From Aureibaculum luteum (GTDB lineage Bacteria; Bacteroidota; Bacteroidia; Flavobacteriales; Flavobacteriaceae): a stretch of 64,000 bases of DNA. The translations under genes were made by a program, and so were the position numbers. The DNA is taken from the NCBI RefSeq assembly GCF_003449015.1, contig NZ_QRGD01000002.1:248001-312000 (forward strand). The letters are read 5' to 3'. The number at the start of each line of letters is the position of its first letter. Positions within the stretch are counted from its first letter, which is position 1. The notes beneath the pieces were generated by a model. That model was not told the origin of the DNA and ran no database searches. It saw only the letters and a program-made list of their open reading frames with translations. Below are positions 11,511 to 29,843 of the stretch, piece by piece.

Positions 11511-14500
11511 ATGCACATTGATGCCCTCATCCATACTTTCAGCCAAAACAACCTTATACAATATTTACGTTACAAAATACCAACCTTTAAACCAGATGAA
11601 GATGATTTAAGTTATTTGTTTGATGATGAGGTCTTTGAAAAATACGAATCCATTGAAAAAATTGGTGAAGCCACCATTAATGGTGATGACCTAATTGTAA
11701 TTGCTTCTAAAACATCTGATGCTTTAACAGAAAAAACTGGTAAGAAAAACCAATATGAAATAGCTAAAAAAATTCTAAAAGAAGAGGTAAAAGATGCTTC
11801 TCTATTTGTATTTTATGATGATGATGGTAATTTTAGGTTCAGTTTTGTAAATGCCAATTACCTTGGTACTAAACGTAGTTATACAGATTTTAAACGTTAT
11901 AGCTATTTTGTTAATAAAGACAAACTAAATAAAACATTTAAACAACAAGTAGGTGATTGTAGCTTTGGTTCAGTTGATGAAATTATAAAAGCATTTAGCG
12001 TTGAACCATTAAACAAACTTTTTTACAAAGAAGTTTCCAAAGCTTTTTACGAGCTAATTGGTGGTAAAATAAACATTGCTAGTAAAAGATACAATTTTGA
12101 TACTTTGTTAGAATTACCTTCAACACCGTTAGCAAATAGAAAAATTTATCAGGAATTTGGTGTTCGATTAATTGGTAGAACTATTTTTTGTTGGTTTTTA
12201 AAAAATAAAAAATCACCAAATAAACTACCTTTAATTCCTGAAAGTTGGTTACACTCAGGTACTGTTGAAATTCTAAGTAATGGTGGATTCAATTACTACC
12301 ACGATTATTTAGAAAAATTATTCTTCTTAATACTTAATAAAAAACAAGAGCAACGAATCGATTATGATTTACCCGATGGTCACGAAACCATACCATTTTT
12401 AAATGGTGGTTTATTTGAACCACATACTGATGATTTTTTCCCTAAAGACAGTAGTGGTATTCATAAAGTATCCTATAACTTAAATATACCAAACGAATGG
12501 TTTTTTAAATTATTTACAGTTTTGGAGCAGTTTAATTTTACCATTGATGAAAATAGCATAAGTGATGCAGAGGTAAGTATTGACCCTGAAATGTTAGGTA
12601 CAATATTTGAAAACCTATTAGCTGAAATAGACCCAGACACAGAAAAAAGTGCAAGGAAAGCTACTGGTAGCTTTTATACTCCAAGAGAAATTGTGGATTA
12701 TATGGTAGAGCAATCCTTAACACAATACTTAATAACAAAAACAGGTGTTGAAGATGAAATTGCATTACAAAATTTGTTTAAAGAAGGTGGTGAAAATGAT
12801 TTTAATGAAGAAAGAACAGAAGAATTACTAGAAGCTTTAAATACGGTTAAAATATTAGACCCAGCTTGTGGTTCTGGTGCTTTCCCCATGGGTGCATTAC
12901 ATAAAATTATTACCATACTTCATAAACTTGACCCTGATGCTTCTTGGTGGAAAGAAAAACAAATTGAAAATATACCAAATGCATTGGCTAGAAAGTATAT
13001 GCAAGAAAAATTGGATACTGCCAATGCCGATTATATTAGAAAATTAGGGATTATTCAAAACTCAATTTATGGTGTAGATATTCAACCAATTGCAACAGAA
13101 ATTTCTAAATTAAGAAGTTTTTTATCTTTAATTATTGATGAAAATATTGTTGATGATGCGGAAAACAGAGGTATTGAACCTTTACCAAACTTGGAGTTTA
13201 AATTTGTAACTGCCAATACCTTAATTGGATTGCCTGATGAAAGTGGACAACAAGGAATGTTTGATAATTTTGAAGAACTACAGCAATTAGAGCAATTAAG
13301 GGCTGATTATCTCCAAAGCTCAGGTAAAAAGAAAAATAAGATTAAACAGAGTTTTTTAAAGGTTCAAAAAAAAGCCTTTATTAATCAAAATAATTTATTT
13401 ACAGACCACAACAGTAGAGCTTTTAAAATAATTAGCTGGAACCCTTTTAAAGATGATGCTTCTTCTTGGTTTGACCCTGAATGGATGTTTGGAATTGAAA
13501 AGTTTGATATTATTATTGGAAATCCTCCATATGGAGTTTCTGTGAAAAATGAATATAGAAAAGAGGTACTAAAACATCTTTTTAAAGTCCCTGATTATGA
13601 AATCTATTATTTCTTCATTGAAGTAGCTCAGAAATACCTGAAAAAGGATGGAATAAAATCATTTATTATTCCTAATAGTTTTTTATTTAATGTCTATGCT
13701 ACTAAATATAGAATTAGATTAATGGAGCTATGGTCTATGTTTATTTTGGATTGTACAGCTTTTAAGATTTTTGAAAAAGCAACCGTTTTAAACGCTATTA
13801 CAATATTTAGGAATAATAATGATAATGCCATATCTTACAAGAAAACAAGTGAAGTTTTTAATTTTCAAGAGTTAATTCAAATCGAAAATAGCAAGATTAA
13901 TTATGACAAAATTTTAAAATTCAATCAAAACTGGAGTTTAGCCTTTAAGCTTGATAAAAAGTCAATAAATTTAATAGAAAAAATCAAGAGTAATTCTGAG
14001 CCTTTAATGAATTTATTTCCAGAATATAGTCAAGGCTTAATCGCTTATGATAAATATCAAGGTCAAGATGAATTCACTATAAAAAATAGAGTTTATCACT
14101 TTAATAGATTAGAAAATGAAAACTTAAAAGAATGGATTTATGGTAGTGATGTTACCCCATTTCAGCTGAATTGGAATGAACAAGAATGGATTGACTATTG
14201 TGATAATTTGGCAAACCCAAGACAACCAAAATTTTTTAAAGGAAATAGGGTTCTAATACGAGAAATCACTAATCCATCAATTTTTGCCGCTTTTACCAAA
14301 ACTGAGTATTATCATGACCCAGCAATAATAGTAGTTCTTGAATCCCCTAATTATAATATATATTCTTTATTGGCTTTTCTTAATTCTAAACTAGCTACAT
14401 TTTATCATTTTAATTCATCTCCTAAAGCCACTAAAGGTGCTTTTCCTAAAATTTTGGTGGAGGATGTGAAAAATTTCCCTCTAAAGATTATTGATGAAAA

Positions 14501-14696
14501 AGTAGAATCAAAAATAGAGAAAATTGTAAAAGAAATTATTTTAAAAGGTTATGACAACTCTAGAGAGAATTTGGTGGAATTAAATTCAATAATTTATAAA
14601 ATGTATAATTTGACGTTTGAGGAAACATTAATAATCGACACAGAATTTGAATTAACTAAAGAACAATACGAAAATTACAGCATTGAAAATGAGTAA
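11511..14696 (+). CDS. Eco57I-type DNA methyltransferase (restriction-modification-like)
   Basis: 1061 residues from the ATG at 11511; the frame also has a TTG at 11502. Residues 1-380 are a region without motifs I can name. The class I SAM fold has motif I ILDPACGSGAF (448-458) and motif IV IIGNPPYG (NPPY 671-674), the N6-adenine methylase signature of the Eco57I/type IIG group. Residues 690-1061 are probably target recognition (TaqI-like C-terminus, SPKATKGAFPKI). It overlaps the next gene by 8 nt. Role inferred: modification subunit of a restriction system, with the PLD-helicase as effector or translocase. The N-terminal region might hold a nuclease, but I see no clear PD-(D/E)XK. Confidence 0.9.
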   Translation: MHIDALIHTFSQNNLIQYLRYKIPTFKPDEDDLSYLFDDEVFEKYESIEKIGEATINGDDLIVIASKTSDALTEKTGKKNQYEIAKKILKEEVKDASLFVFYDDDGNFRFSFVNANYLGTKRSYTDFKRYSYFVNKDKLNKTFKQQVGDCSFGSVDEIIKAFSVEPLNKLFYKEVSKAFYELIGGKINIASKRYNFDTLLELPSTPLANRKIYQEFGVRLIGRTIFCWFLKNKKSPNKLPLIPESWLHSGTVEILSNGGFNYYHDYLEKLFFLILNKKQEQRIDYDLPDGHETIPFLNGGLFEPHTDDFFPKDSSGIHKVSYNLNIPNEWFFKLFTVLEQFNFTIDENSISDAEVSIDPEMLGTIFENLLAEIDPDTEKSARKATGSFYTPREIVDYMVEQSLTQYLITKTGVEDEIALQNLFKEGGENDFNEERTEELLEALNTVKILDPACGSGAFPMGALHKIITILHKLDPDASWWKEKQIENIPNALARKYMQEKLDTANADYIRKLGIIQNSIYGVDIQPIATEISKLRSFLSLIIDENIVDDAENRGIEPLPNLEFKFVTANTLIGLPDESGQQGMFDNFEELQQLEQLRADYLQSSGKKKNKIKQSFLKVQKKAFINQNNLFTDHNSRAFKIISWNPFKDDASSWFDPEWMFGIEKFDIIIGNPPYGVSVKNEYRKEVLKHLFKVPDYEIYYFFIEVAQKYLKKDGIKSFIIPNSFLFNVYATKYRIRLMELWSMFILDCTAFKIFEKATVLNAITIFRNNNDNAISYKKTSEVFNFQELIQIENSKINYDKILKFNQNWSLAFKLDKKSINLIEKIKSNSEPLMNLFPEYSQGLIAYDKYQGQDEFTIKNRVYHFNRLENENLKEWIYGSDVTPFQLNWNEQEWIDYCDNLANPRQPKFFKGNRVLIREITNPSIFAAFTKTEYYHDPAIIVVLESPNYNIYSLLAFLNSKLATFYHFNSSPKATKGAFPKILVEDVKNFPLKIIDEKVESKIEKIVKEIILKGYDNSRENLVELNSIIYKMYNLTFEETLIIDTEFELTKEQYENYSIENE

Positions 14697-17600
14697 TAAT
14701 TTTATAACAAATAGCGGAGAATTCACCCTAAAAAAACGTTTAGAATCATTAATTTCTGTTAGTAGTGAACTTAAATTTTTGGTTGGGTATTTCTACTTTT
14801 CTGGTTGGCAAGAGATTTATAAAAAGTTAGAACAAAATAAAGAAGTAAATCTTAAAATACTAGTTGGGTTACAAGTAGAGAAATATCTTTCTAATATTGT
14901 TGAAATTGGTTTAAAAGATGATAGTTTAAGCCAAGAAGAGCATTTTACCCAGTTTATGAAATCTATGGGATATGCTATTAACAATGCCGAAATGGATAAT
15001 GAAGCATTTTATAACCAAATAGCTTTTTTTATTCAGTTACTAGAAGAGGGTAGGTTAATTATTCGCAAAACTTTAAACCCAAATCACGCTAAATTATATA
15101 TATTCAAATTGAATGAATCGCAGATTTCAGCTAAAGAAGCTTTTATAACTGGTAGTAGTAATTTAACCAAATCTGGTTTACATAAACAAGAAGAATTTAA
15201 TGTAGAAATTAAAGATTACGGTTTTGAAAGTGCTGAAAAATACTTTGATGATTTGTGGATTACTTCCATTCCAATCACGGAAGCCGAAAATGGCACAAAA
15301 GTTATTATAGATTTTTTAAAGAATAAAAGTCAAGCTTCATTAATTACACCTTATGAAGCATATGCATTGATATTAAAAACATATATTGAGCTTCAAGATG
15401 CTAAAAAAATTAACAATGCCATAGACCGTTTATTAGAAGATAATGGTTTTGAGAAATACAAGTATCAAATAGATGCGGTTAATCAAGCCTTAAACGTAAT
15501 TGAAACTTATAATGGTGTTATAATTGCAGATGTAGTAGGTTTAGGTAAAAGTATTATTGCATCATTGGTAGCAAACCAATTAGGTAAAAGAGGTCTAATT
15601 TTATGCCCTCCCGGATTAATTGGAAGTAGAAAGGATAATACTGGATGGTGGGAATATAAAAACAAGTTTAACCTTAATTGCGAGATAGCTAGTTCTGGTA
15701 ATTTAGAATCAGAAGCAGAGGCTTTTATAGAAAACAAACATTTAGATTATGATTTTGTAATAGTTGATGAAGCTCATAAATTTAGAAATCAAGATACCTC
15801 CGCATATGAAGCACTATTAGATATTTGTAGAGGTAAACAAGTGATTTTATTAACTGCAACACCATTTAACAATTCACCAGCAGATATATTTTCTTTATTA
15901 AAATTATTTATAATTCCTGGGCAATCTGGCATCACTTTAGAGCAAGATTTAGAAGGTAGGTTTAACGCTTATAATTATCGTTTTAAACGATTATCAAATA
16001 TTATTAAAAACCACCAGTCTTTAAACCAAGAAAAGGTGGTGAAAGCCGAAAAAGACTATGTTAAATTATTTGGTATTGAGCCACCTATTGATATTCATAT
16101 TGTAAGAGAAAATGTGAAGGCAATGGCTAATGATATTAAAAATATTATTACACCTATCGTAATTAGACGTAACAGATTGGATTTAAAAACAGATTTTGAA
16201 TATAAGAATGAGGTTCAAAATTTATCAGAAGTTAATGACCCAGAAGAGCAATTTTTTGAGCTTTCAAAAGAACAATCAGATTTTTACGATAGAATAATTA
16301 CCAATTATTTTAGTGAAGAAGGAAACTTTAAAGGAGCGATATACAAACCTTTTGAATATGAAAATAAGGTTGAGGATGAAGGTAAAATGAGTGAGGATGA
16401 TAACAGAGCATTCCAACAACAACGTAACTTATTCGATTTTATGAGAAGGTTGCTAGTGAAACGTTTTGAAAGTTCATTTGGTGCATTTGATAAAAGTATT
16501 GAACGCTTTTTAAGAACGCATAAAATGGTACTCTCATTTATTGTGCATTCTGGTAAATATGTAATGGATAGAAAAGTCATTGAACAGATATATAATGAAG
16601 ATGATGAAGCAGATGATTTTACCTATGAAGCTATTAAAAAAGCGTTAGAAGAATTTGAAAAAAATGCAGAATTTAAAAAGAAACCAAAACACACTACAAT
16701 TTATAAGGTTGATGAATTTGAATTTAAAGACAAATTTATTGCAGATATAAAAAGTGATATTCAATTATTTGAGCGAGTTGACCAAGAAGTAAAAGCGTTG
16801 AAATTAGTTGAAAATGACCCCAAAAGGGAAGCCGTTTTAAAAACGATTAAAAATGTATTACACCAAAAATCAACACCACGAAGAAAAGTCATCTTATTTT
16901 CTGAATATACGGATACAGTACGTCACCTAAAAGAGTTATTTGAAAAGGAGCTTGTTGGTAGAGCAATGTTTTGTGATGGTAGTATTACAAAAAAGTTTGC
17001 TTTAGAGTTAAATGCTAATTTCGATGCCAAGTTTAAAAATCAGGTAGATGATTTTGATGTATTAATTACCAGTGATAAACTTTCAGAAGGATACAATTTA
17101 AACAGAGCTGGATTAATTATCAACTATGATATTCCTTGGAATCCTACTAGAGTTATACAACGTGTTGGAAGGATAAATAGAATGAGTGCCAAGGTATTTG
17201 ATGAATTATATATTTACAATTTTTTCCCAACCGACCAAGGTTCTGATATTGTAAAAAGTAGAGAAATAGCACAGCAAAAAATGTTTTTAATTCATAGTGC
17301 ATTGGGTGAAGATGCTAAAATGTTTGATGCTGATGAAAAACCAACACCAAGTGGTTTATTTACTAAAATCAGTCAGAACCCAGAAGAGAATGAAGAATTA
17401 AGTGTTAGTACCATTATTAGGAATGATTACAATGAAATACTTAATAATCATCCAGACATAGTTAAGAAAATTAGTAAACTTCCAAGCAGAACCAAGACCG
17501 CTAAATTATTTGAAGAAAACAATGCAGTCGTTTTAAGGAAAAAAGGAATGGCTTTGTTTTCAATTGTTCACCAGTACGAAACTGAAAAGCCAATAGAGAA

Positions 17601-18048
17601 AACATTTGAAGAATTATTACATTTTGTAAAATGTACACCTGAAGATGAAAGACAACCTTTAACCAAAAAGTTTTGGAAGTCCTATGAAGAAATGAAAGTT
17701 TACAAACCAAAATATAGCACTGGAAAGTCTGAAGCTGCTTTGGAAACAAAGGCAAATATAGCTCTGAAGACACTTTTAAAAATAAAAAGAGATGACTTAG
17801 ACCAAGAACTTATTACCTTCATTGGTACCCTTTTGAATGATATAAAAAAGTATAAAACCCTATCTAAATTTACATTAAGAAGATTGGTTCTTGGTGATGC
17901 GAAAGGTGATAAAAAATATGATGATTTAATAGCTAGTATTATTGAGCTAAAAATAAAATTAGGTGCTGACTACCTTGATATTATTTTAACTAGAAGTAGC
18001 CATATTGAAAATGATGTGATTATTGCTGTTGCAAATTATAATGAATAA
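14689..18048 (+). CDS. PLD-like nuclease fused to superfamily 2 helicase
   Basis: 1119 residues from the ATG at 14689, which overlaps the methyltransferase stop. Residues 1-200 are a phospholipase D-like domain with NHAKLY (His133, Lys135) and GSSNLT, the HxK...GSxN pattern of PLD nucleases. Residues 255-850 are an SF2 helicase: GLGKS Walker A (284-288), DEAH (360-363), LTATPFN, and motif VI QRVGRINR (824-831). The C-terminal 270 residues are unassigned. PLD plus helicase plus methylase recalls DISARM and type ISP logic, but the fusion and gene set do not match those I know. Probably the DNA-translocating effector. Translationally coupled to the methylase gene. Confidence 0.92.
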   Translation: MSNNFITNSGEFTLKKRLESLISVSSELKFLVGYFYFSGWQEIYKKLEQNKEVNLKILVGLQVEKYLSNIVEIGLKDDSLSQEEHFTQFMKSMGYAINNAEMDNEAFYNQIAFFIQLLEEGRLIIRKTLNPNHAKLYIFKLNESQISAKEAFITGSSNLTKSGLHKQEEFNVEIKDYGFESAEKYFDDLWITSIPITEAENGTKVIIDFLKNKSQASLITPYEAYALILKTYIELQDAKKINNAIDRLLEDNGFEKYKYQIDAVNQALNVIETYNGVIIADVVGLGKSIIASLVANQLGKRGLILCPPGLIGSRKDNTGWWEYKNKFNLNCEIASSGNLESEAEAFIENKHLDYDFVIVDEAHKFRNQDTSAYEALLDICRGKQVILLTATPFNNSPADIFSLLKLFIIPGQSGITLEQDLEGRFNAYNYRFKRLSNIIKNHQSLNQEKVVKAEKDYVKLFGIEPPIDIHIVRENVKAMANDIKNIITPIVIRRNRLDLKTDFEYKNEVQNLSEVNDPEEQFFELSKEQSDFYDRIITNYFSEEGNFKGAIYKPFEYENKVEDEGKMSEDDNRAFQQQRNLFDFMRRLLVKRFESSFGAFDKSIERFLRTHKMVLSFIVHSGKYVMDRKVIEQIYNEDDEADDFTYEAIKKALEEFEKNAEFKKKPKHTTIYKVDEFEFKDKFIADIKSDIQLFERVDQEVKALKLVENDPKREAVLKTIKNVLHQKSTPRRKVILFSEYTDTVRHLKELFEKELVGRAMFCDGSITKKFALELNANFDAKFKNQVDDFDVLITSDKLSEGYNLNRAGLIINYDIPWNPTRVIQRVGRINRMSAKVFDELYIYNFFPTDQGSDIVKSREIAQQKMFLIHSALGEDAKMFDADEKPTPSGLFTKISQNPEENEELSVSTIIRNDYNEILNNHPDIVKKISKLPSRTKTAKLFEENNAVVLRKKGMALFSIVHQYETEKPIEKTFEELLHFVKCTPEDERQPLTKKFWKSYEEMKVYKPKYSTGKSEAALETKANIALKTLLKIKRDDLDQELITFIGTLLNDIKKYKTLSKFTLRRLVLGDAKGDKKYDDLIASIIELKIKLGADYLDIILTRSSHIENDVIIAVANYNE

Positions 18049-18092
18049 GAAGAAAGTATAACTGATATTGTATATTACAATATTTCACTAAT

Positions 18093-18251
18093 TGGATTGA
18101 ATGGAAAGATAGAAATTTTTTAAAAGGTATTAATTATTCTGGCATTTATTGTATTGCAGTTTAAGACAAATCACTTCATAAATTTAGTTTTATTTCAGAG
18201 CTTGAATATATATTCATGACAAATTTTAGAAAGGATTATAAAGCCGATTAA
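18093..18251 (+). pseudogene. Decayed GIY-YIG-like nuclease fragment
   Basis: In the 395-nt gap inside the operon, one frame reads NYSGIYCIAV, stop (TAA 18162-18164), then DKSLHKFSFISELEYIFMTN. GIY followed about 25 residues later by YI(G)MTN is the signature of one GIY-YIG nuclease group; here the second Gly is Phe and the frame is broken by TAA again at 18249. The rest of the gap (to 18443) reads as further decayed coding-like sequence (GDKKSIRDTFIGFQEYLYWD in another frame). The call rests on this short match only. Confidence 0.45.
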
Positions 18252-18443
18252 TTAATAATATTTTTAAATGAAATATAAATGCAAACTTAGTTAATAAACA
18301 TGAGTTAGGAGATAAAAAATCAATTAGAGATACGTTTATAGGCTTTCAAGAGTATTTGTATTGGGATAGGGCGGTGTAATATTAATTGTTATAGAAGGGA
18401 TGAAAATGTTGCAGTGAATGTGAATTTAAAATTTGATTAGGAT

Positions 18444-18938
18444 ATGTTAAAAGATGTGTTACATAAAGATTTAAAAATAGTTTTCTGTGGCACAGCTAAA
18501 GGTACAGCTTCCGTAACAAAAGGCTTTTACTATGCTGGTTCAGGTAATCAGTTTTACAAAATTCTTTTTAATGCTAATTTTACAGATTCATTGTTGATAC
18601 CAGATAATTGCTATGACATTTATAAATTTGGAATTGGTTTAACAGATTTAGTTCACAACCAACATGGCAATGATAATGAAATCAATGAAAGTAATTATAA
18701 TGTGAAAGGATTTATTGACAAAATAAATAAATTTAAGCCCAAATACATTGGGTTTAACGGTAAAAAAGCAGCTTCGTATGTTTTAGGACTTGAAGGAAAA
18801 ACAGGAAAAGTTCAATACGGGTTACAAACTCAGAAAATCAAAGAAACTAAACTTTTTGTGTTACCGTCTACTTCCGGCAGTGCAAGAAAATATTGGGATG
18901 AGGCGTATTGGAAAGAATTGGCAACTTATATTATTTAA
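18444..18938 (+). CDS. Mug/TDG-type mismatch DNA glycosylase
   Basis: 164 residues, the length of the single-domain MUG/TDG branch of uracil-DNA glycosylases. Motif 1 is FCGTAKGTAS (about 13-22), followed by KGFYYAGSGNQFYKIL, matching the GxYYAGPGNRFW pattern; motif 2 is LPSTSGSARKYW (about 142-153). The enzyme family removes uracil or thymine opposite G, or damaged bases. The usual catalytic Asn of Mug (GxNP) is not present: the motif here is GTAKG, as in some divergent members. Stop and next ATG abut exactly, so it is co-transcribed. In this operon it may act on phage DNA with modified or deaminated bases rather than in housekeeping repair. Confidence 0.82.
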   Translation: MLKDVLHKDLKIVFCGTAKGTASVTKGFYYAGSGNQFYKILFNANFTDSLLIPDNCYDIYKFGIGLTDLVHNQHGNDNEINESNYNVKGFIDKINKFKPKYIGFNGKKAASYVLGLEGKTGKVQYGLQTQKIKETKLFVLPSTSGSARKYWDEAYWKELATYII

Positions 18939-20039
18939 ATGACAGCAAGGAATTTTAGAATTTTAGTATTTTTATTAGCCTTTATATTAGGAATAACTTC
19001 AATCTTTTTGGTTTGGTTTTCATTTGAAGCAGCAGCTGAAACGGAAAATTGGAGTTTTATGGATTTCGATTTTTCTAAAAAAGAGGGAATTATTTCATCT
19101 TATGGGAGTTTATTAGCTGCCATACTTTCTTTTGTTGCCATTCTTTTAGTATTGCTCGATTTGTTTTATCAAAGAAGACTTAAAACAATTGAAGCTGAAG
19201 ATAAGGAAACGGAGGTAATTGATTCATATCGTGATAATTTAAATATCATAATTCTATTTATTGAGCAATTATGTCAAGATGTAATTAGTCAAAGTAAAAT
19301 AGCTAATGATTATGTCAAAAAAGAAAAAAACAATCCGACTGAGCCGAATAGAATGTCATTTGTTTCAAATGCATACCCTAAGTTAATACTTGATGTTGAC
19401 CGAAATAGGTTTTATAATTCTATACAACACTTTAAGCCAAGTGAAAATTGGAAAAAACTATATGTTAACATTTATAAAATTACTGATTTTTATGACAAGT
19501 CGTTTGAAGATATAAAAAAGAAACATCAAATACATCTTGATAAAAAATTTAAGCACTGTATAGATCTTGGAAAAACCCTAGATGAAATTATAGATATTAA
19601 TTCTGAAATAAGAAATAATATAATCAATGAATGTAAAGCCAATGAAACTCACTCAACTGAAAACCCTTATTTTGGAGTATTACAATTCATAAAGGAAAAG
19701 GCAATTGAAATTATATCGAGACGAACCAATGCTGAAGATAGACTTAATGATGATTATATAAATCCTACATCATTAACTGTTTGGCGGGATGAAGTATTTC
19801 AAGTTGCTTTTAATGAAATAATTTCACTATGGAATATTAATGGCCATGACAATTACAATCTAAAGTTATTGCTAAATAAAATTCAATTTTATTTAAGAGA
19901 ATATTCTAGATTAATACAGGATTCTGAAGACTATTCTAAACATGTCGAAATTTATTTTAATGATAATTATAGCGAAGATTCGAGCTATGTTAAAAAGTTA
20001 AAAGAAATTATAGAATCAATAGAAAAAGTTCTAGATTAA
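18939..20039 (+). CDS. Two-TM protein with long cytoplasmic tail, AbiC-like architecture
   Basis: 366 residues starting directly after the glycosylase stop. TM1 is at about 7-28, TM2 at about 53-75 (LLAAILSFVAILLVLLDLFY) followed by a basic charge cluster QRRLK, then 290 mostly helical residues. Two N-terminal helices with a YGSLLAAILSFVAI-type second helix and a long soluble tail is the layout of putative phage abortive infection proteins (PutAbiC, PF16872); I infer similarity by layout, not by a firm motif. It could be a membrane effector or a sensor for the system. Confidence 0.75.
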   Translation: MTARNFRILVFLLAFILGITSIFLVWFSFEAAAETENWSFMDFDFSKKEGIISSYGSLLAAILSFVAILLVLLDLFYQRRLKTIEAEDKETEVIDSYRDNLNIIILFIEQLCQDVISQSKIANDYVKKEKNNPTEPNRMSFVSNAYPKLILDVDRNRFYNSIQHFKPSENWKKLYVNIYKITDFYDKSFEDIKKKHQIHLDKKFKHCIDLGKTLDEIIDINSEIRNNIINECKANETHSTENPYFGVLQFIKEKAIEIISRRTNAEDRLNDDYINPTSLTVWRDEVFQVAFNEIISLWNINGHDNYNLKLLLNKIQFYLREYSRLIQDSEDYSKHVEIYFNDNYSEDSSYVKKLKEIIESIEKVLD

Positions 20040-20067
20040 ATAGTTTTAAAACTAATTATTATAAACA

Positions 20068-21861
20068 ATGATACAAAATACTGACAACAAACCAATTTCA
20101 GAATTATTTAGTGCAGATAATAAAATATCTTACCATATACCTAAATATCAACGTGAATATGTATGGAGTAAATGGAATTGGGAATCCTTATTTGATGACA
20201 TTGAAGAGAGTGAAGGAGGTCACTTTTTGGGATCAATAATTTGCATTAATACACAGAAGGATTCTAGTAAGCCTGCTGATTTACAATTGGTTGATGGTCA
20301 ACAAAGAATGACAACAATATGCTTATTTTATTTAGCTATTTATAAATTTTTAATAGATAATGCACCAGACAAGACAAATTTAAAACATCAGTTAAAATTA
20401 ATGGCTTTAAGGAATCGAATTGTTTTTGAAGACACAAATAAAGTTAGGTTAGAACCTTCATATTCTAACAGTAATTTAGATGATTATAAATGGATTTTTA
20501 CAACAATAATAGAAGAACTTAAGAAAATAAAAAAACCTAAAAATTTCGGAAATAGAAGAATTAGTAAGGCATACAATTATTTTCATGATAGACTGAATGA
20601 GTTGGATGAGAACAATAATCCAGTCTATAACTATAATCAAGTGAATAACATATTTAACAAGTTAAATAGTGCAACTTTAGTGAAAATAGATGTCGCTACG
20701 CATGCGGATGCATTTACATTATTTGAAACTTTAAATAATAGAGGTGTTCCATTATCAGCAATTGACTTAATTAAGAATAAGTTACTTGGACATTTAGAAA
20801 AGGTAGAGAAAACCACAAATTTAAACGAGAACTTTGAACGATGGAATGCTATTATTTCTAATTTGTCTGACGAATACAAAGTACAAGAACGCTTCTTACG
20901 TCAGTTTTATAATGCTTTTAAATTAGAACCTGAAATTTTGGTTAATAAACGACCTAAAGCCTTAAGATCTAATTTAATTTTGATTTATGAAGAATTAATA
21001 AATAGAAATGTACATTTCTTTTTTGATAGGTTGGAAGAAGCATCACTAATATATTCAAGTCATATTGAATATGATATTGATGAGCATTCTAGTGAATTAA
21101 TAAATGTAATGCGAAATCTAGAAAACGTTACAGGAGCTGACGCATATATGCTATTATTGTATATTGTCAAAAGGTTTGATATTAATGAAGATGAAAAAAT
21201 TAAATTGGTTAATCTTTTATGTAATTATTCGATTCGTAGAAATGTAACGGATACACCACCAACGAGAGATTTGACCAATCATTTTATGGAAATAATTGCT
21301 GAAACTGATAAATTGGAAGATTACTCTTATGATAATATCAGAGATATTATTTTAGACAAAGGAAAACCTGCTTCTGATGAATACTTTGCAGAAAAACTAA
21401 ATGGTGATCTTTATGACGAAAATGTAGGTGCAACGAGATATATTCTTTCATCAATAGAATTAGCAAATACTGAAACAAAGGAAATATATAAAAACTTTTA
21501 TGCCAGAGACAAGAGAAAATTTGTTTGGACAATTGAACATATATTTCCACAAGGTGATAAAATACCTACTCATTGGGTTGATATGATTGCTGATGGTGAT
21601 ATACTAAAAGCAAACGAGATAAAAAAAGAATCAGTTCATAAGCTAGGTAACTTAACTTTGACTGGTTACAATTCACAGTTAAGTAATATGTCTTTGGTTA
21701 AAAAACAGAACAGAAAATCAAAGGATGGTAAGTTTATTGGTTTCAAAAATGGACTTTATATAAATGAGAAGGTTAGCGACATTTCTGAATGGAAGCAAGA
21801 AAATATAAATAATAGAACCGATGAATTAGTTAACTCTGCACTTGAAATATTTAAATTATGA
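20068..21861 (+). CDS. GmrSD-type DUF262-DUF1524 restriction protein
   Basis: 597 residues. N-terminal DUF262 domain with YQREYVW (about 28-34) and LVDGQQRMTT (74-83), a ParB-like NTP-binding motif. C-terminal DUF1524 HNH-type nuclease domain with IEHIFPQG (E490, H491) and LGNLTLTGYNSQLSN. Fused GmrS-GmrD proteins are type IV, modification-dependent restriction enzymes that cut glucosylated hydroxymethylcytosine DNA; others of this class are found in BREX and other islands. All catalytic motifs look intact. It overlaps the next gene by 4 nt (ATGA), so both are coupled. Confidence 0.9.
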   Translation: MIQNTDNKPISELFSADNKISYHIPKYQREYVWSKWNWESLFDDIEESEGGHFLGSIICINTQKDSSKPADLQLVDGQQRMTTICLFYLAIYKFLIDNAPDKTNLKHQLKLMALRNRIVFEDTNKVRLEPSYSNSNLDDYKWIFTTIIEELKKIKKPKNFGNRRISKAYNYFHDRLNELDENNNPVYNYNQVNNIFNKLNSATLVKIDVATHADAFTLFETLNNRGVPLSAIDLIKNKLLGHLEKVEKTTNLNENFERWNAIISNLSDEYKVQERFLRQFYNAFKLEPEILVNKRPKALRSNLILIYEELINRNVHFFFDRLEEASLIYSSHIEYDIDEHSSELINVMRNLENVTGADAYMLLLYIVKRFDINEDEKIKLVNLLCNYSIRRNVTDTPPTRDLTNHFMEIIAETDKLEDYSYDNIRDIILDKGKPASDEYFAEKLNGDLYDENVGATRYILSSIELANTETKEIYKNFYARDKRKFVWTIEHIFPQGDKIPTHWVDMIADGDILKANEIKKESVHKLGNLTLTGYNSQLSNMSLVKKQNRKSKDGKFIGFKNGLYINEKVSDISEWKQENINNRTDELVNSALEIFKL

Positions 21862-22916
21862 GTCATAATCAATGGTCAGCATTAAATTTTATATTATCAG
21901 AGAATATAAGTTTTGGTATTAATGAACAACTTTTTGAAAATAAAGTAATTCAAGCTTTTGGAGAACTTGGATGGAAAGAATACCTAGGTAATATTGAAGT
22001 AAGACCTACACTTCATATTGGTTCTGTAAACAGAATAGAACCGGATTTATTATTTAAATCTGACAAACAAAAGAATTTATTCGTTATTGAAGTTAAAAGA
22101 CCAGACATAGACCTTAATCTTGATTATCAGAAGCAATTATTCTCTTACATGAGACAACTAAAACTTGATTATGGTATTCTTATAGGTAAAGAAATTCAGG
22201 TATTTTATGATGGTAATTTGTATAAATCAGATAATCCATTAATGATTGATAAAATTTCATTTGGTAAACGAAATGTAAAAGGAGAAAAGTTTGTTCAGTT
22301 ATTTAATAAATCAAGTTTTAATTTTGAAAATTTAGATAAATTCACCCAAAAAAAGTTGGACCAAATAGATAGAAGACAACAGAAAATAAAACTTAAGGAA
22401 ATAATCTTATCTGAAGAATATAAGAGGAATATGCTTAAAATTCTTAAAGAGAATTTATTTAATGATTACGATATAGAAACGATTGAAAATGTATTTGAAG
22501 AATTAGAAGTTGAAATAAAAGACAAAACGAAAAAGTCAGCGTCAGAGATAAAACACAAATTATTAATATCAAAAAATAGTATTACATCTAAGGTTTTGAA
22601 TAATGATAAAAGAAAAGTAGATGGTCTAAAAATAGGGGCATATGTTCAAAAAACATTTAGAAGATTTACTGACAAGAATCTTTTAACTTCTAAAGAAATA
22701 GTAAACCTTCGAAGTGAAGATTACTCAAAGCAAGTTTTTGGTGCCAATTATAAAATATTAAGACACATTTCAGAAGGAACGAAAGATTATTCGGGTAGAA
22801 GTAGGTATTATACAAAAGAATTATTTGTAGGTGATTATTATCTAACGGCACAATGGAATGAAAGTCATTGGGATAAGTTTTTATTGTGGGAGAATAAAGT
22901 TACTGGCAAAAATTAA
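21858..22916 (+). CDS. PD-(D/E)XK nuclease (HsdR N-terminal type)
   Basis: 352 residues. Residues 20-130 carry the restriction endonuclease fold of type I HsdR N-termini: Glu at the front helix (NEQLFENKVIQAF), IEPDLLF (D63) and VIEVKRP (E78, K80), which form D-x(n)-E-x-K. The C-terminal 200 residues are Lys-rich helices followed by a WNESHWDKFLLW end that I do not recognise. The last gene of the operon, sharing ATGA with the GmrSD gene. Likely the cutting partner or an added effector. There is no HsdS or HsdM nearby other than the Eco57I-type methylase. Confidence 0.88.
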   Translation: MSHNQWSALNFILSENISFGINEQLFENKVIQAFGELGWKEYLGNIEVRPTLHIGSVNRIEPDLLFKSDKQKNLFVIEVKRPDIDLNLDYQKQLFSYMRQLKLDYGILIGKEIQVFYDGNLYKSDNPLMIDKISFGKRNVKGEKFVQLFNKSSFNFENLDKFTQKKLDQIDRRQQKIKLKEIILSEEYKRNMLKILKENLFNDYDIETIENVFEELEVEIKDKTKKSASEIKHKLLISKNSITSKVLNNDKRKVDGLKIGAYVQKTFRRFTDKNLLTSKEIVNLRSEDYSKQVFGANYKILRHISEGTKDYSGRSRYYTKELFVGDYYLTAQWNESHWDKFLLWENKVTGKN

Positions 22917-23564: not shown

Positions 23565-24176
23565 ATGAGAATTACGGCCATTATTTTTATGCTCGGTGTA
23601 GTAGCCTCTTGCCAAACGGCACCGAAAATAAATTCAGGGCAACACTATAACGTTTCCAAGGCTGATTTGGCTATGATACCGTATCAAGGTAAAACAGCAC
23701 TCGTTTTTGTGTCGTCAGAAAAAGATACGTTGCGTCTTTTTTCTGAGGGTGTTGTAAAAGATACTATTGGCTCAGACCCGTGGGCAAAAAATCCAGATTA
23801 TTTTGATTGATATATTTATACGTTAGCACCAAGTAAAAACGATACCGTTTTTACGGGAGAAATTACTATTAAATTATTGGCAGAACGAGAAAATGCCTTA
23901 ACCATTGAATTTTATATTGCTGCAAAAGGACTGGTGTTTTATGGCACTGATTATTTTAGTAGAGAGCAATTGGCGGCTGTGCCAATAACGGAATTTACCT
24001 TGGGTACAAAAACATTTACTGATGTACAGCTATTTAAAAGTACCGGACGTTTTAGTGAGCGTGATAATTCCATAGAAACGGTATATTTTAGTAAATCAGC
24101 AGGCTTTTTGGGGTTTGATAAAAAAAACACCCAATGGCGTTTACTGCTAACTCCCGAATCCGGAGACTCGAACTGA
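23565..24176 (+). pseudogene. Lipoprotein gene broken by an in-frame TGA
   Basis: A lipobox signal (LGVVASC) opens a frame that stops at TGA 23808-23810 after 81 codons, yet the same frame continues as clean coding sequence (YIYTLAPSKNDTVFTGEITIK ...) to 24176. Read through, it is a 203-residue protein. The last codons (TPESGDSN) lie inside a dispersed repeat copy, so the natural C-terminus was also altered. Either a nonsense mutation or a sequencing error; selenocysteine is unlikely without any selenoprotein context. Family unknown. Confidence 0.75.
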
Positions 24177-25780: not shown

Positions 25781-26773
25781 ATGAAAGAACAAAACCAAAT
25801 AGAAATTTATCAAGCCAATGATGGTACCACTCAAATTAATGTACAATTTGAGAAAGATACGGTTTGGCTTACACAAGCTCAAATGGGGGAATTATTTGAT
25901 AAAAATAAGCGTACTGTTTCAGAACATATACGAAATATTTTTACTGAAGGTGAACTTCAAGAAAAAATGGTTGTCCGGAAATCCCGGATAACCACTGAAC
26001 ATGGTGCTATCCCTAGTAAAACGCAAACATCAGCTGTAAATCTATACAATCTAGATGTAATTATATCTGTAGGATATAGAGTAAAATCAAAGCAAGGTAC
26101 ACAATTTAGAATATGGGCAACACAAACCTTGAAAGAGCATTTAGTAAAAGGTTATACGCTGAATGAAAAGAGATTAGCACAAAAGCAACAAGAAGTCCAG
26201 GTATTAAAAGATGGGATTCATATTTTAACGAGAAGCGTAGCAAAGGCTATAGAAGAAAAATCATCAGATAATGATTTGTTAGAAATTTTTGCACAAGGTT
26301 TAAGTTTATTAGATGATTATGATCATGAACAATTAGATGTAAAAGGTTTAACTAAAAGAGAAGCTACTTATCCAAGTTTAGAAGACTATCAAAAACTAAT
26401 TAATCAAATGTTAACTGAATTTGATTCGGATGTATTTGGTAAAGAGAAAGACCAAAGTTTTCAAAGTTCAGTAGCACAAATAGCAAAAGGATTTGGAAAT
26501 GATGATTTTTATGCCACATTAGAAGAAAAAGCCACTATGCTTTTATATTTAATAGTAAAAAATCATTCTTTTGTAGATGGCAATAAACGTATAGCAGCTG
26601 CTTGTTTTCTGAAGTTTTTACAGTTGAATAAGATGCTTTTTAATAGTCAACAAGAACCGATAATTAGCAACGATACTTTAGCAAGCTTAACACTATACAT
26701 TGCTTCTAGCAAACCAGAAGAAATGGAAACCGTTAAGCGATTAGTGATTAGCGTATTAAATAGAAATAAATAA
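25781..26773 (+). CDS. RhuM-type domain fused to Fic/Doc domain
   Basis: 330 residues. N-terminal ~150 residues are the RhuM/virulence-protein domain (VWLTQAQMGELFDKNKRTVS, then YNLDVIISVGYRVKSKQGTQF), a DNA-binding-like module seen in phage antirepressors. The C-terminal ~130 residues hold the Fic/Doc motif HSFVDGNKRIA (His262, Asp266, Gly267, Asn268), which in the family AMPylates or phosphorylates targets; the usual HPF is HSF here. Found as a stand-alone gene in a repeat-rich area. Might be a self-contained toxin-antitoxin-like protein. No inhibitory helix motif was seen. Confidence 0.88.
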   Translation: MKEQNQIEIYQANDGTTQINVQFEKDTVWLTQAQMGELFDKNKRTVSEHIRNIFTEGELQEKMVVRKSRITTEHGAIPSKTQTSAVNLYNLDVIISVGYRVKSKQGTQFRIWATQTLKEHLVKGYTLNEKRLAQKQQEVQVLKDGIHILTRSVAKAIEEKSSDNDLLEIFAQGLSLLDDYDHEQLDVKGLTKREATYPSLEDYQKLINQMLTEFDSDVFGKEKDQSFQSSVAQIAKGFGNDDFYATLEEKATMLLYLIVKNHSFVDGNKRIAAACFLKFLQLNKMLFNSQQEPIISNDTLASLTLYIASSKPEEMETVKRLVISVLNRNK

Positions 26774-28318: not shown

Positions 28319-28534
28319 ATGCACCCACAACAGTTAATAGAAATTATAAAAGCACGTAGAGATATGCTAAATGTAACCCAAGAGATGCTTGCAGATCTTT
28401 CTGGTGTAGGTTTACGTACCCTAAAACAATTTGAAAGCGGTAAAGGCAACCCAACTTTAGAAACCTTACAAAAGCTTGGTAACGCATTGGGTATGGAACT
28501 CACCTTTACAGTTAAAGATGTAACTAAAAAATAA
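28319..28534 (+). CDS. hipB: HipB-like HTH antitoxin/repressor
   Basis: 71 residues, a Cro/C1-type helix-turn-helix of HipB type: NVTQEMLADLSGVGLRTLKQ (about 19-38) forms helices 2-3, followed by FESGKGNPTLETLQKLGNAL. Directly overlaps the next gene (TAATG). Binding to the two upstream TAGTGC-N8-GCACTA sites would give autorepression of the operon; that is inference from position. In HipBST systems HipB also helps neutralise the kinase. Confidence 0.9.
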   Translation: MHPQQLIEIIKARRDMLNVTQEMLADLSGVGLRTLKQFESGKGNPTLETLQKLGNALGMELTFTVKDVTKK

Positions 28535-28860
28535 TGAGACAAGCAGAGGTATTATACAAAAAAGAAGCTGCAGGGTTGTTAATGCAGTTAGATGATGGTA
28601 GTTTTGTGTTTACTTATTACGACTATTGGTTTAATAATCCAGATAAACCCGCTATTAGTTTGACCTTACCCAAAACGCAACAAGAATTTACCTCAAAATA
28701 TCTGTTTTCCACTTTTTATAATATGTTGCCAGAAGGGTCTAACAAACAAACGGTTTGTTTTGAGAATCGAATAGATAAAAAAGACCATTTTGGCATCTTA
28801 CTTACCACTGCAAAATACGATACTATTGGAGCAATAACCATTAAAAAAATAACGAACTAA
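28534..28860 (+). CDS. hipS: HipS-like protein (HipA N-subdomain 1)
   Basis: 108 residues matching the N-terminal subdomain that is part of HipA in E. coli but is a separate gene in HipBST systems. Motifs: AGLLMQLDDGSFVFTYYDYW, PAISLTLP and FFSTFYNMLPEGSNKQ-like FSTFYNMLPEGSNKQ (about 66-80). In the known HipBST system HipS, not HipB, is the main antitoxin. Coupled to both neighbours through TAATG overlaps. Confidence 0.88.
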   Translation: MRQAEVLYKKEAAGLLMQLDDGSFVFTYYDYWFNNPDKPAISLTLPKTQQEFTSKYLFSTFYNMLPEGSNKQTVCFENRIDKKDHFGILLTTAKYDTIGAITIKKITN

Positions 28861-29843
28861 TGGCTTTACCAAAAATAACATATTGTCCAGGTACACTAGC
28901 AGCAAATTATACTAGCTACAGTAACACTGCATTAAAACGTTTGTTTCAAGGAAGAAAAGTAAGTCCAATATTGCCTTACGATTCGCCAACAAACAATGAA
29001 CAAACAGATATGTTGTTTACTGCAAACAGAAAACGCATGTCTATTTCTGGTGTTCAAGAAAAATTCTCGGTCTTACTAGAAAAAAATAAATTGCGTTTAA
29101 TAGATGAAGGAGAACAAGGACAATACATTTTAAAACCAATTCCTAACGTTGGTAAAAACGCCAGCCAAATGCCAGCAAACGAGCATGTAACCATGCAAAT
29201 TGCACGTCAGGTATTTCATATGGAAACCGCAGAAAATGCACTCATTTTTTTTAAAAATGGTGCTGCTGCATATATTACAAAACGTTTTGATGTTAAAGAT
29301 GATGGCAATAAATGGGCTCAAGAAGATTTTGCTTCTTTAGCTGGCAGAACACCACAAACACATGGCGAAGATTTTAAATATTCTGGTAACTACGTTGAAC
29401 TTTTTCAAATATTAAAAAAGTATACACCTGCTTATACTATAGAATCTATCAAATTATTTAAGCTGATACTCTTTAACTATTTATTCTCGAATGGAGATGC
29501 ACATTTTAAAAACTTTTCATTAATTGAAACACCTATGGGTGATTTCAGATTAAGTCCTGCTTATGATTTGTTAAATAGTAGATTACACATAGAAGATAAA
29601 GAATTTGCGTTAGATGATGGCTTATTGCCGCCTAATTTAGCACAGGGAAAAATTACAGAGCAGTTTTTTATCTTAGGAGAAAAAGCTGGTATTTTAAAAC
29701 AACAAGTAAACAAAGTGTTTTCCGATGTATTGTCTAAACAAAATGAAGTGCATACATTAATTGAAGCCTCTTTTTTAAATGAAAAAGCAAAACGAAATTA
29801 CACACAAGCCTATCAGACAAGATTAAAAAAACTAACCCGTTAA
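28860..29843 (+). CDS. hipT: HipT-like Ser/Thr kinase toxin
   Basis: 327 residues, the HipA-fold kinase without its N-terminal subdomain. Gly-rich loop MSISGVQEKFS with Ser61-Ile-Ser63 (the SIS double-serine autophosphorylation motif described for HipT), catalytic NGDAHFKNFSL (Asp213, Asn218) and the metal-binding LSPAYDLLNS aspartate. Known HipA-type kinases phosphorylate aminoacyl-tRNA synthetases (HipA GltX, HipT TrpS), giving growth arrest. Target here unknown. All catalytic residues appear intact. Confidence 0.9.
   Translation: MALPKITYCPGTLAANYTSYSNTALKRLFQGRKVSPILPYDSPTNNEQTDMLFTANRKRMSISGVQEKFSVLLEKNKLRLIDEGEQGQYILKPIPNVGKNASQMPANEHVTMQIARQVFHMETAENALIFFKNGAAAYITKRFDVKDDGNKWAQEDFASLAGRTPQTHGEDFKYSGNYVELFQILKKYTPAYTIESIKLFKLILFNYLFSNGDAHFKNFSLIETPMGDFRLSPAYDLLNSRLHIEDKEFALDDGLLPPNLAQGKITEQFFILGEKAGILKQQVNKVFSDVLSKQNEVHTLIEASFLNEKAKRNYTQAYQTRLKKLTR

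What the first reader, a model, noticed from the sequence alone, without database searches (positions are those of the whole stretch)
11511..22916. Undescribed composite defence operon: methylase, PLD-helicase, glycosylase, 2-TM protein, GmrSD, PD-(D/E)XK nuclease
Six intact genes in one direction with overlaps or tight spacing (8-nt overlap, abutting, 28 nt, 4-nt overlap), apart from a 395-nt gap with a decayed nuclease remnant. Together they hold an Eco57I-type adenine methylase, a PLD nuclease fused to an SF2 helicase, a Mug/TDG-type glycosylase, a two-TM tail protein, a fused GmrS-GmrD and an HsdR-N-like nuclease. Parts match known logic (DISARM, type ISP, type IV), but I know no named system with this whole set. 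Whether all parts act together is inference.
Basis: partly seen in the sequence, partly recalled or inferred. Interest (0 to 1): 0.88.

Follow-up and report, generated by a model that had tools for sequence, protein, structure and literature searches.

The report
Two-gene restriction system plus unrelated neighbours
Six defence-like genes sit in a row, but only the first two form a unit that recurs in other genomes (a DNA-marking enzyme and a DNA-cutting motor); the other four look like separately acquired defence genes parked behind it.

Summary
The remnant in the 395-nt gap belongs to a GIY-YIG-like protein whose intact relative sits behind the same helicase in another genome.

The claim of one six-gene system is not supported. 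The best 80 loci from a scan with the helicase (g2) span many phyla. Of the 29 with at least 5 kb on both sides, 27 have a g1-type methylase beside g2; of all 80, 53 do, most of the rest being cut by contig ends. Relatives of g3, g4 and g6 occur in 0 of 80 (44 have 5 kb downstream). Starting from g1 in viral contigs, 24 of 32 loci hold a g2-type helicase, 17 with its nuclease end. Nineteen regions around relatives of g3, g4 or g6 contain no g2.

So g1+g2 is a two-gene restriction-modification-like module (adenine methylase plus PLD-nuclease/SNF2-helicase) that failed the tests run for DISARM, Hma/BREX-related and type IIG. Its two gene orders split the g2 tree. Methylase-first loci often carry an exchangeable, often toxin-like cassette between the genes; the window's slot is empty. 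Genes 3-6 look like stacked, independent defence genes. No paper I saw names the pair.

The parts
11511..14696 (+). g1: N6-adenine DNA methylase (Eco57I/TaqI_C type) with an N-terminal domain; modification half of the pair
   Evidence: Pfam Eco57I 90.5 bits, TaqI_C 59.9; AF2 model pLDDT 78.1; Foldseek best matches BrxX/PglX, CamA, BseCI, MmeI, DrdV; no conserved PD-(D/E)XK triad in the N-terminus of 38 aligned rows, window included
14689..18048 (+). g2: N-terminal PLD nuclease fused to a SNF2-type SF2 helicase; restriction half of the pair
   Evidence: Pfam PLDc_2 33.9, SNF2-rel_dom 50.5, Helicase_C 58.6 bits; H135, K137, GSSN, GLGK, DE-H and QR-GRINR residues invariant in 37 aligned rows, window included
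18084..18245 (+). decayed remnant of a GIY-YIG-like protein (label from its GIY and EYVGMTN-type motifs, recalled; Pfam gave no hit)
   Evidence: 65% identity over 54 aa to P0007 in L007, one stop inside; 0 Pfam families for P0007
18444..18938 (+). g3: MUG/TDG-type DNA glycosylase
   Evidence: Pfam UDG 56.3 bits; E. coli Mug 2.6e-20 and D. radiodurans MUG 9.4e-19 in PDB (the species names of 1mtl and 2c2p are recalled)
18939..20039 (+). g4: protein with two N-terminal hydrophobic helices and a long helical tail, no named family; its relatives sit beside defence nucleases in half of the other genomes found
   Evidence: no Pfam hit at E 0.001 and no PADLOC or PHROG family; relatives; model only pLDDT 41.7
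20068..21861 (+). g5: fused GmrS-GmrD type IV restriction enzyme
   Evidence: GmrSD_N 133.5 (cut-off 33.2) and GmrSD_C 62.2 (cut-off 23) bits
21858..22916 (+). g6: HsdR-N-like PD-(D/E)XK protein with a separate C-terminal domain
   Evidence: HSDR_N_2 24.4 bits, just under cut-off; C-terminal ~100 aa shared with other proteins in L123-L125

Best explanation
g1 and g2 form a two-gene, ATP-dependent restriction-modification-like module: g1 methylates adenine at its target site in host DNA, and g2 is recruited to unmethylated foreign DNA, translocates with its SNF2 motor and cuts with its PLD site (pairing and motifs shown; methylation, translocation and cutting inferred). Genes 3-6 are not parts of this machine. 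They are separately acquired defence genes that accumulated behind it in one island and may share its transcript: a MUG-type glycosylase and a GmrSD enzyme that would attack DNA carrying unusual bases, a membrane accessory protein, and a small nuclease-like protein. Together the island would give layered protection against unmodified and modified phage DNA, without the parts needing each other.
For: g1 lies beside g2, same strand, in 27 of 29 loci with at least 5 kb on both sides and in 53 of all 80 (26 upstream, 27 downstream); the two full-flank exceptions keep short g1 fragments. Reciprocal scan from g1 in viral contigs: 24 of 32 loci have a g2-type ORF, 17 of them matching the PLD end. Catalytic residues of PLD and helicase, and NPPY of the methylase, invariant across 37 and 38 aligned rows. 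The g1 N-terminus lacks a conserved nuclease triad, so the PLD site is the likely cutter. Gene order tracks the g2 tree with one change. g3, g4, g6 relatives in 0 of 80 g2 loci; no g2 in 19 regions around relatives of g3, g4 or g6.
Against: All six genes are codirectional with tight joints and similar low GC, so co-transcription and some cooperation remain possible. A second locus has the order methylase - HsdS - g4 relative - GmrSD with the same 28-nt g4-to-GmrSD gap as the window (L113), hinting that g4+g5 may be a real pair. Only the best 80 of 520 g2 relatives were read, some are near copies (L049/L050, L072/L079), and 36 of them have under 5 kb downstream of g2. Eight of 32 g1-type viral loci have no g2-type ORF: L143 at a contig edge, L155 with a strong methylase match, and six with weaker ones. 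No methylation or cleavage data exist here. PADLOC models call g1 a type IIG enzyme.
Confidence: 0.75

Rival explanations
1. One composite six-gene system, in which glycosylase, membrane protein, GmrSD and nuclease are effectors or backups of the methylase-helicase core.
For: Codirectional genes, overlaps, shared low GC; a published survey reports PD-(D/E)XK nucleases and GmrSD-family HNH enzymes as prominent auxiliary effectors of BREX and BREX-related systems (PMC12839542, passages).
Against: The set recurs nowhere in what I searched: 0 of 80 g2 loci carry g3, g4 or g6; 0 of 19 g3/g4/g6 regions carry g2; the gap holds a remnant of a different gene, a sign of cargo turnover.
Confidence: 0.12
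2. g1 is a self-contained type IIG restriction-methylase and g2 a separate helicase-nuclease defence gene that merely sits beside it.
For: All 38 g1 rows hit PADLOC REase_MTase_IIG models, best 2e-204; the g1 fold matches MmeI and DrdV among others.
Against: Close adjacency in both search directions; no conserved PD-(D/E)XK triad in the g1 N-terminus.
Confidence: 0.1
3. g3-g6 contain a second true module: g4 (two-TM) plus g5 (GmrSD) as a membrane-coupled type IV system, with g3 and g6 loosely attached.
For: The g4-then-GmrSD order with a 28-nt gap occurs twice, in the window and L113; g4 relatives also lie beside a pAgo relative, a type I HsdR and a large protein with an Mrr_cat hit at its cut-off.
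Against: Only two cases; other g4 relatives have other partners or none that I recognised.
Confidence: 0.3

Closest known systems
DISARM class 1 (DrmMI + DrmD with DrmA, DrmB, DrmC; composition recalled)
   Same: Adenine methylase next to a SNF2-like helicase; g2 hits DrmD models, g1 hits DrmMI models
   Different: DrmD score 149.7 against a curated cut-off of 610; no MZB/DUF1998 protein (the DrmA mark, recalled) in the genome; the PLD site is fused to the helicase instead of a separate DrmC
DUF499-centred BREX-related systems, type 2 (DUF499 systems also published as Hma)
   Same: N6-methylase plus an N-terminal HKD/PLD nuclease fused to a Swi2/Snf2 helicase (PMC12839542, passages and section 28)
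   Different: No DUF499 ATPase in the window's genome or in two relatives with the pair, nor in the 8 of 16 large neighbour ORFs tested
Type IIG/IIL enzymes (MmeI, DrdV, BpuSI)
   Same: Methylase and specificity-domain resemblance by profile and fold
   Different: No conserved nuclease triad in the N-terminus; a partner gene g2 nearly always beside it
CglI / NgoAVII and SauUSI
   Same: ATP-driven SF2 motor working with a PLD nuclease (abstract starts in the listing; PLD assignment recalled)
   Different: CglI and NgoAVII are three-gene systems with motor and nuclease as separate proteins; SauUSI is a single-protein modification-dependent enzyme (recalled)
Brig1/Brig3 antiphage glycosylases
   Same: UDG-superfamily glycosylase in a defence island (PMC13160076, passages)
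   Different: g3 is in the Mug/TDG branch; relation to Brig proteins not tested

Membership tests
DISARM | DrmD at curated equivalog score | tested here: not met
   149.7 bits against cut-off 610; second DrmD model 88.2 against 950
DISARM | DrmA-type helicase with MZB/DUF1998 domain | tested here: not met
   PF09369: 0 matches in the window's genome; control genomes ring in 8 of 14
DISARM | separate DrmB and DrmC genes | tested here: inconclusive
   none among the six proteins; further neighbours and the rest of the genome were not scanned for them
Hma / BREX-related type 2 | DUF499 ATPase | tested here: not met
   PF04465: 0 of 3 genomes (own, G083, G269); control rings in 1 of 14
Hma / BREX-related type 2 | HKD nuclease fused N-terminally to a SNF2 helicase | tested here: met
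   PLDc_2 33-192 then SNF2/Helicase_C; PADLOC HKD+Snf2 model covers 16-870
Hma / BREX-related type 2 | DUF3780 gene | tested here: inconclusive
   no such Pfam hit among the six proteins or the eight flanking window proteins scanned; rest of genome not tested
BREX | PglZ and BrxC | not tested
   the genome was not searched for them; none among the six proteins
Type IIG restriction-methylase | active PD-(D/E)XK nuclease in the same chain | tested here: not met
   no conserved triad in the N-terminal columns of 38 rows; no nuclease Pfam hit; other nuclease types in the chain not excluded
Two-gene MTase + PLD-SNF2 module (this report) | g1 and g2 adjacent, same strand | tested here: met
   window overlap 8 nt; 27 of 29 full-flank loci, 53 of 80 overall
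GmrSD type IV restriction | GmrSD_N and GmrSD_C in one chain with HNH motif | tested here: met
   133.5 and 62.2 bits over cut-offs; EHIFPQ and LGNLTL strings (HNH reading recalled)
GmrSD type IV restriction | cleaves modified DNA | not testable with these tools
   needs an assay
Mug (E. coli type) | curated NCBIfam equivalog score | tested here: not met
   99.6 bits against 144
MUG/TDG branch of the UDG superfamily | homology to solved MUG/TDG enzymes | tested here: met
   1mtl Mug 2.6e-20, 2c2p MUG 9.4e-19, thymine DNA glycosylases 1e-14 to 1e-15
MUG/TDG branch of the UDG superfamily | catalytic residue kept | tested here: inconclusive
   motif 1 is GTAKG where 1mtl has GINPG, but the Asp aligned with Asp93 of 2c2p is kept (alignments; the catalytic role of Asp93 is recalled)

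The most novel reading that the evidence does not exclude
The g1-g2 pair is an unnamed, phylum-spanning restriction-modification type in which cutting is done by a PLD nuclease on a SNF2 motor, and what models file as a lone type IIG enzyme is only its modification half. In its methylase-first branch the junction between the two genes is a cargo slot for exchangeable, often toxin-like cassettes (AbiE, Schlafen-AlbA, HipA, Fic and others), which could act as fail-safes when the restriction unit is disabled.
Probability: 0.4. Interest if true: 0.65.

Novelty: new variant of a known kind. Interest (0 to 1): 0.45.

Why it matters
If right, a widespread gene pair that annotation models split into a type IIG enzyme and a stray helicase should be counted as one two-gene restriction system, and its methylase/helicase junction is a ready-made place to look for new toxin cassettes. 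It also shows that tight spacing in a defence island is weak evidence for one machine: testing recurrence from both sides separates a real unit from stacked cargo.

Tried and rejected
Six-gene system: rejected because the set does not recur. DISARM and Hma membership: rejected on missing parts. Viral-contig scans with g4 and g3, each with a single protein as query, found no relatives; plasmid searches with g4 and g6 found none. g3 relatives occur in 94 of 72,556 plasmid-collection records, mostly proteobacterial, and in 6 of 50,697 phage-collection records; the one such context I read, a Microvirga plasmid, is not a defence island, so g3-type glycosylases are not always defence genes. A same-genus empty site could not be shown: the flank protein used had no match in the one same-genus genome searched. 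The single-sequence fold of g4 was too poor to search (pLDDT 41.7). Bacteroidota-type TAnnTTTG motifs (recalled) occur at eight places between 9000 and 24000, none just before g1 or in the 395-nt gap, which says little either way.

Literature: nine paper searches were answered. In their listings, and in the passages I read of PMC12839542 (also abstract, outline and section 28), PMC10273834, PMC13160076, PMC13092281, PMC6329791 and PMC3710099, I saw no system described as this pair. The library lacks most subscription journals, and REBASE was not available.

Counts and rows dropped: the pairing count keeps every locus with g1 but, among loci without g1, only the two with 5 kb on both sides (53 of 55); because that favours pairing, I give the count on the 29 full-flank loci instead (27) and the plain 53 of 80. 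L071, with a methylase 6.2 kb away, is among the 27 of 80 counted as without g1. One partial locus (L051) was left out of the tree. The Pfam survey of slot proteins used 21 of 22 slot ORFs (one was a methylase fragment) plus 12 of 36 upstream ORFs; at least two of these 12 (L083, L089) are probably outside any slot. The downstream survey used 49 of 64 ORFs, and 25 of its 45 families were shown. The g1 alignment used 37 of 43 full-length relatives plus the window, the g2 alignment 36 of 74 plus the window. DUF499 was looked for in 8 of 16 large neighbour ORFs.
Full report
Observation. The six ORFs, their coordinates and their joints are as described. Domains are confirmed by Pfam, and the catalytic strings are present. 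The block is 26-31% GC against 34-35% in the flanks. The 395-nt gap contains a decayed copy of part of a 154-aa protein that is intact behind the same helicase in genome G269 (65% identity over 54 aa, one stop). Its GIY and EYVGMTN-type motifs suggest a GIY-YIG nuclease, a label I recall and that Pfam did not give.

First look at relatives. In 299 genomes of the family, a close g2 relative (E <= 1e-100) occurs in 4 including the window's own. In G083 a g1 relative and g2 lie next to each other without g3-g6 relatives in the stretch read. In G269 a 1133-aa g1 relative is followed by ORFs that group by sequence with AbiE-like slot proteins of other loci, then g2, a 211-aa ORF, the intact GIY-YIG-like ORF and a Piwi-domain protein. 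In G088 the contig ends at g2.

Recurrence of the pair. A g1-type ORF of at least 150 aa lies within 6 kb on the same strand in 53 of 80: 26 upstream and 27 downstream of g2. Of the 27 without one, 25 have too little flank on at least one side. Counting only the 29 loci with at least 5 kb on both sides, 27 have it. The two exceptions, L043 and L065, keep 76- and 63-aa g1 fragments. From the other side, a g1 profile scan of viral contigs gave 32 loci, of which 24 carry a g2-type ORF; in 17 of these it matches the PLD end, in 7 only the later part. Among the 14 that have both a g2-type ORF and a methylase with the N-terminal domain, 13 helicases match the PLD end; among 9 whose methylase lacks it, 3 do (Fisher p 0.005, not corrected for relatedness).

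Order and slot. On a quick maximum-likelihood tree of 53 g2 proteins, methylase-first and helicase-first loci fall on the two sides of one branch (SH-aLRT 98, one change). More than 500 nt separate the two genes in 16 of 26 methylase-first and 4 of 27 helicase-first loci (Fisher p 0.0006, same caveat). Pfam on 33 proteins from these slots or just upstream gives AbiEii in 5, Schlafen AlbA_2 in 5, DUF4143 in 2, resolvase in 2, DUF6088 in 2, and single HipA, RhuM, Bro-N, Fic, DUF2971, SocA, PDDEXK_3 and other hits; TatD and Radical_SAM in 2 each are not toxin-like. The window belongs to the methylase-first branch and has no cassette. Downstream neighbours of the pair are heterogeneous (49 proteins, no family in more than 2).

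What the proteins are. g2 keeps the PLD histidine and lysine, the GSSN string, Walker A, DE-H and QR-GRINR residues in all 37 aligned rows, window included. g1 is closest by profile and fold to CamA, BseCI, BrxX/PglX, MmeI and DrdV (model pLDDT 78.1). Its N-terminus shows no conserved PD-(D/E)XK triad in 38 rows, although PADLOC models label all 38 as type IIG. The plain reading is that g1 marks and g2 cuts; this is inference from motifs and pairing.

Membership. DISARM is not met (DrmD score far below cut-off, no MZB protein in the genome). The published DUF499-centred BREX-related type 2 system has the same helicase architecture (PMC12839542, passages and section 28), but DUF499 is absent from the window's genome and two relatives and from the 8 of 16 large neighbour ORFs tested. 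CglI/NgoAVII and SauUSI are mechanistic analogues (abstract starts).

Genes 3-6. g3 is a MUG/TDG-type glycosylase, found at E <= 1e-12 in 1 of 299 family genomes and 3 of 395 phylum genomes, own included in each. The two other copies from the phylum search each overlap a downstream gene: one with a CoiA_N domain in L133, one with a NucS_C hit just over its cut-off in L134; both neighbourhoods look like defence islands by my reading, most of their genes unscanned. g4 has no family; 9 of 299 family genomes have it, own included, plus two more genomes from the phylum search. Of the 10 other genomes, relatives lie within two genes of a defence-type nuclease in five: a 1495-aa protein with an Mrr_cat hit at its cut-off (L111), HsdR (L112), GmrSD (L113), and a pAgo relative (L115, L116, near copies). 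In a sixth, L114, a g1-like methylase is nearby; in the other four I recognised none, but did not scan their neighbours. In L113 the order methylase-HsdS-g4-GmrSD has the same 28-nt g4-GmrSD gap as the window. g6 relatives occur in 9 of 299 genomes, own included; six of the eight other regions were read, and four show no g1-g5 relative, while L121 has a g1-like methylase and L125 a weak g1 match. None of the 19 regions read around g3, g4 or g6 relatives contains g2. g5-profile relatives occur in 1 of 80 g2 loci, L028, and one further GmrSD_N protein turned up among 49 downstream neighbours.

Function of the extras. Antiphage glycosylases of the UDG superfamily that excise modified bases are described (Brig1, Brig3; PMC13160076, passages), and GmrSD cuts glucosylated 5hmC DNA (same source). 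A layered island against unmodified (g1-g2) and modified (g3, g5) DNA is therefore plausible, but that g3 and g5 act this way here is inference.

Verdict. What remains of interest is the two-gene module with its two orders and its cassette slot, and the g4 family beside varied defence nucleases.

Noticed in passing
L013, L015-L017, L021-L024, L030, L031, L040, L041, L051, L052 and others: Exchangeable, often toxin-like cassettes between methylase and helicase genes, mostly in methylase-first loci (16 of 26 against 4 of 27 helicase-first).
   Followed up: partly
L111-L118, L131, L132: The g4 family sits within two genes of an Mrr_cat protein, type I HsdR, GmrSD or a pAgo relative in five of ten other genomes; in L112, L115 and L116 a second small protein that reads as membrane-bound lies next to it (L112 10135-10560; L115 7335-7883).
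   Followed up: partly
L007 11972-18560: Behind g2 in G269: a 211-aa ORF, an intact GIY-YIG-like ORF and a 688-aa Piwi-domain protein in a row.
   Followed up: partly
L134 7692-9082 and L133 7378-8911: MUG-type glycosylase genes overlapping a NucS_C-domain gene or a CoiA_N gene, a possible glycosylase-nuclease couple.
   Followed up: no
viral loci L137-L164: The methylase N-terminal domain and the PLD end of the partner helicase tend to be present together (13 of 14 against 3 of 9).
   Followed up: partly
window 25781-26773 and 28319-29843: A RhuM-Fic fusion (Pfam) and a gene set that reads as HipB/HipA (recalled, not scanned) lie downstream of the island; both kinds also occur among slot proteins of related loci.
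   Followed up: no
window 23565-24176: Two short ORFs in one frame separated by a single stop, which look like one interrupted gene.
   Followed up: no
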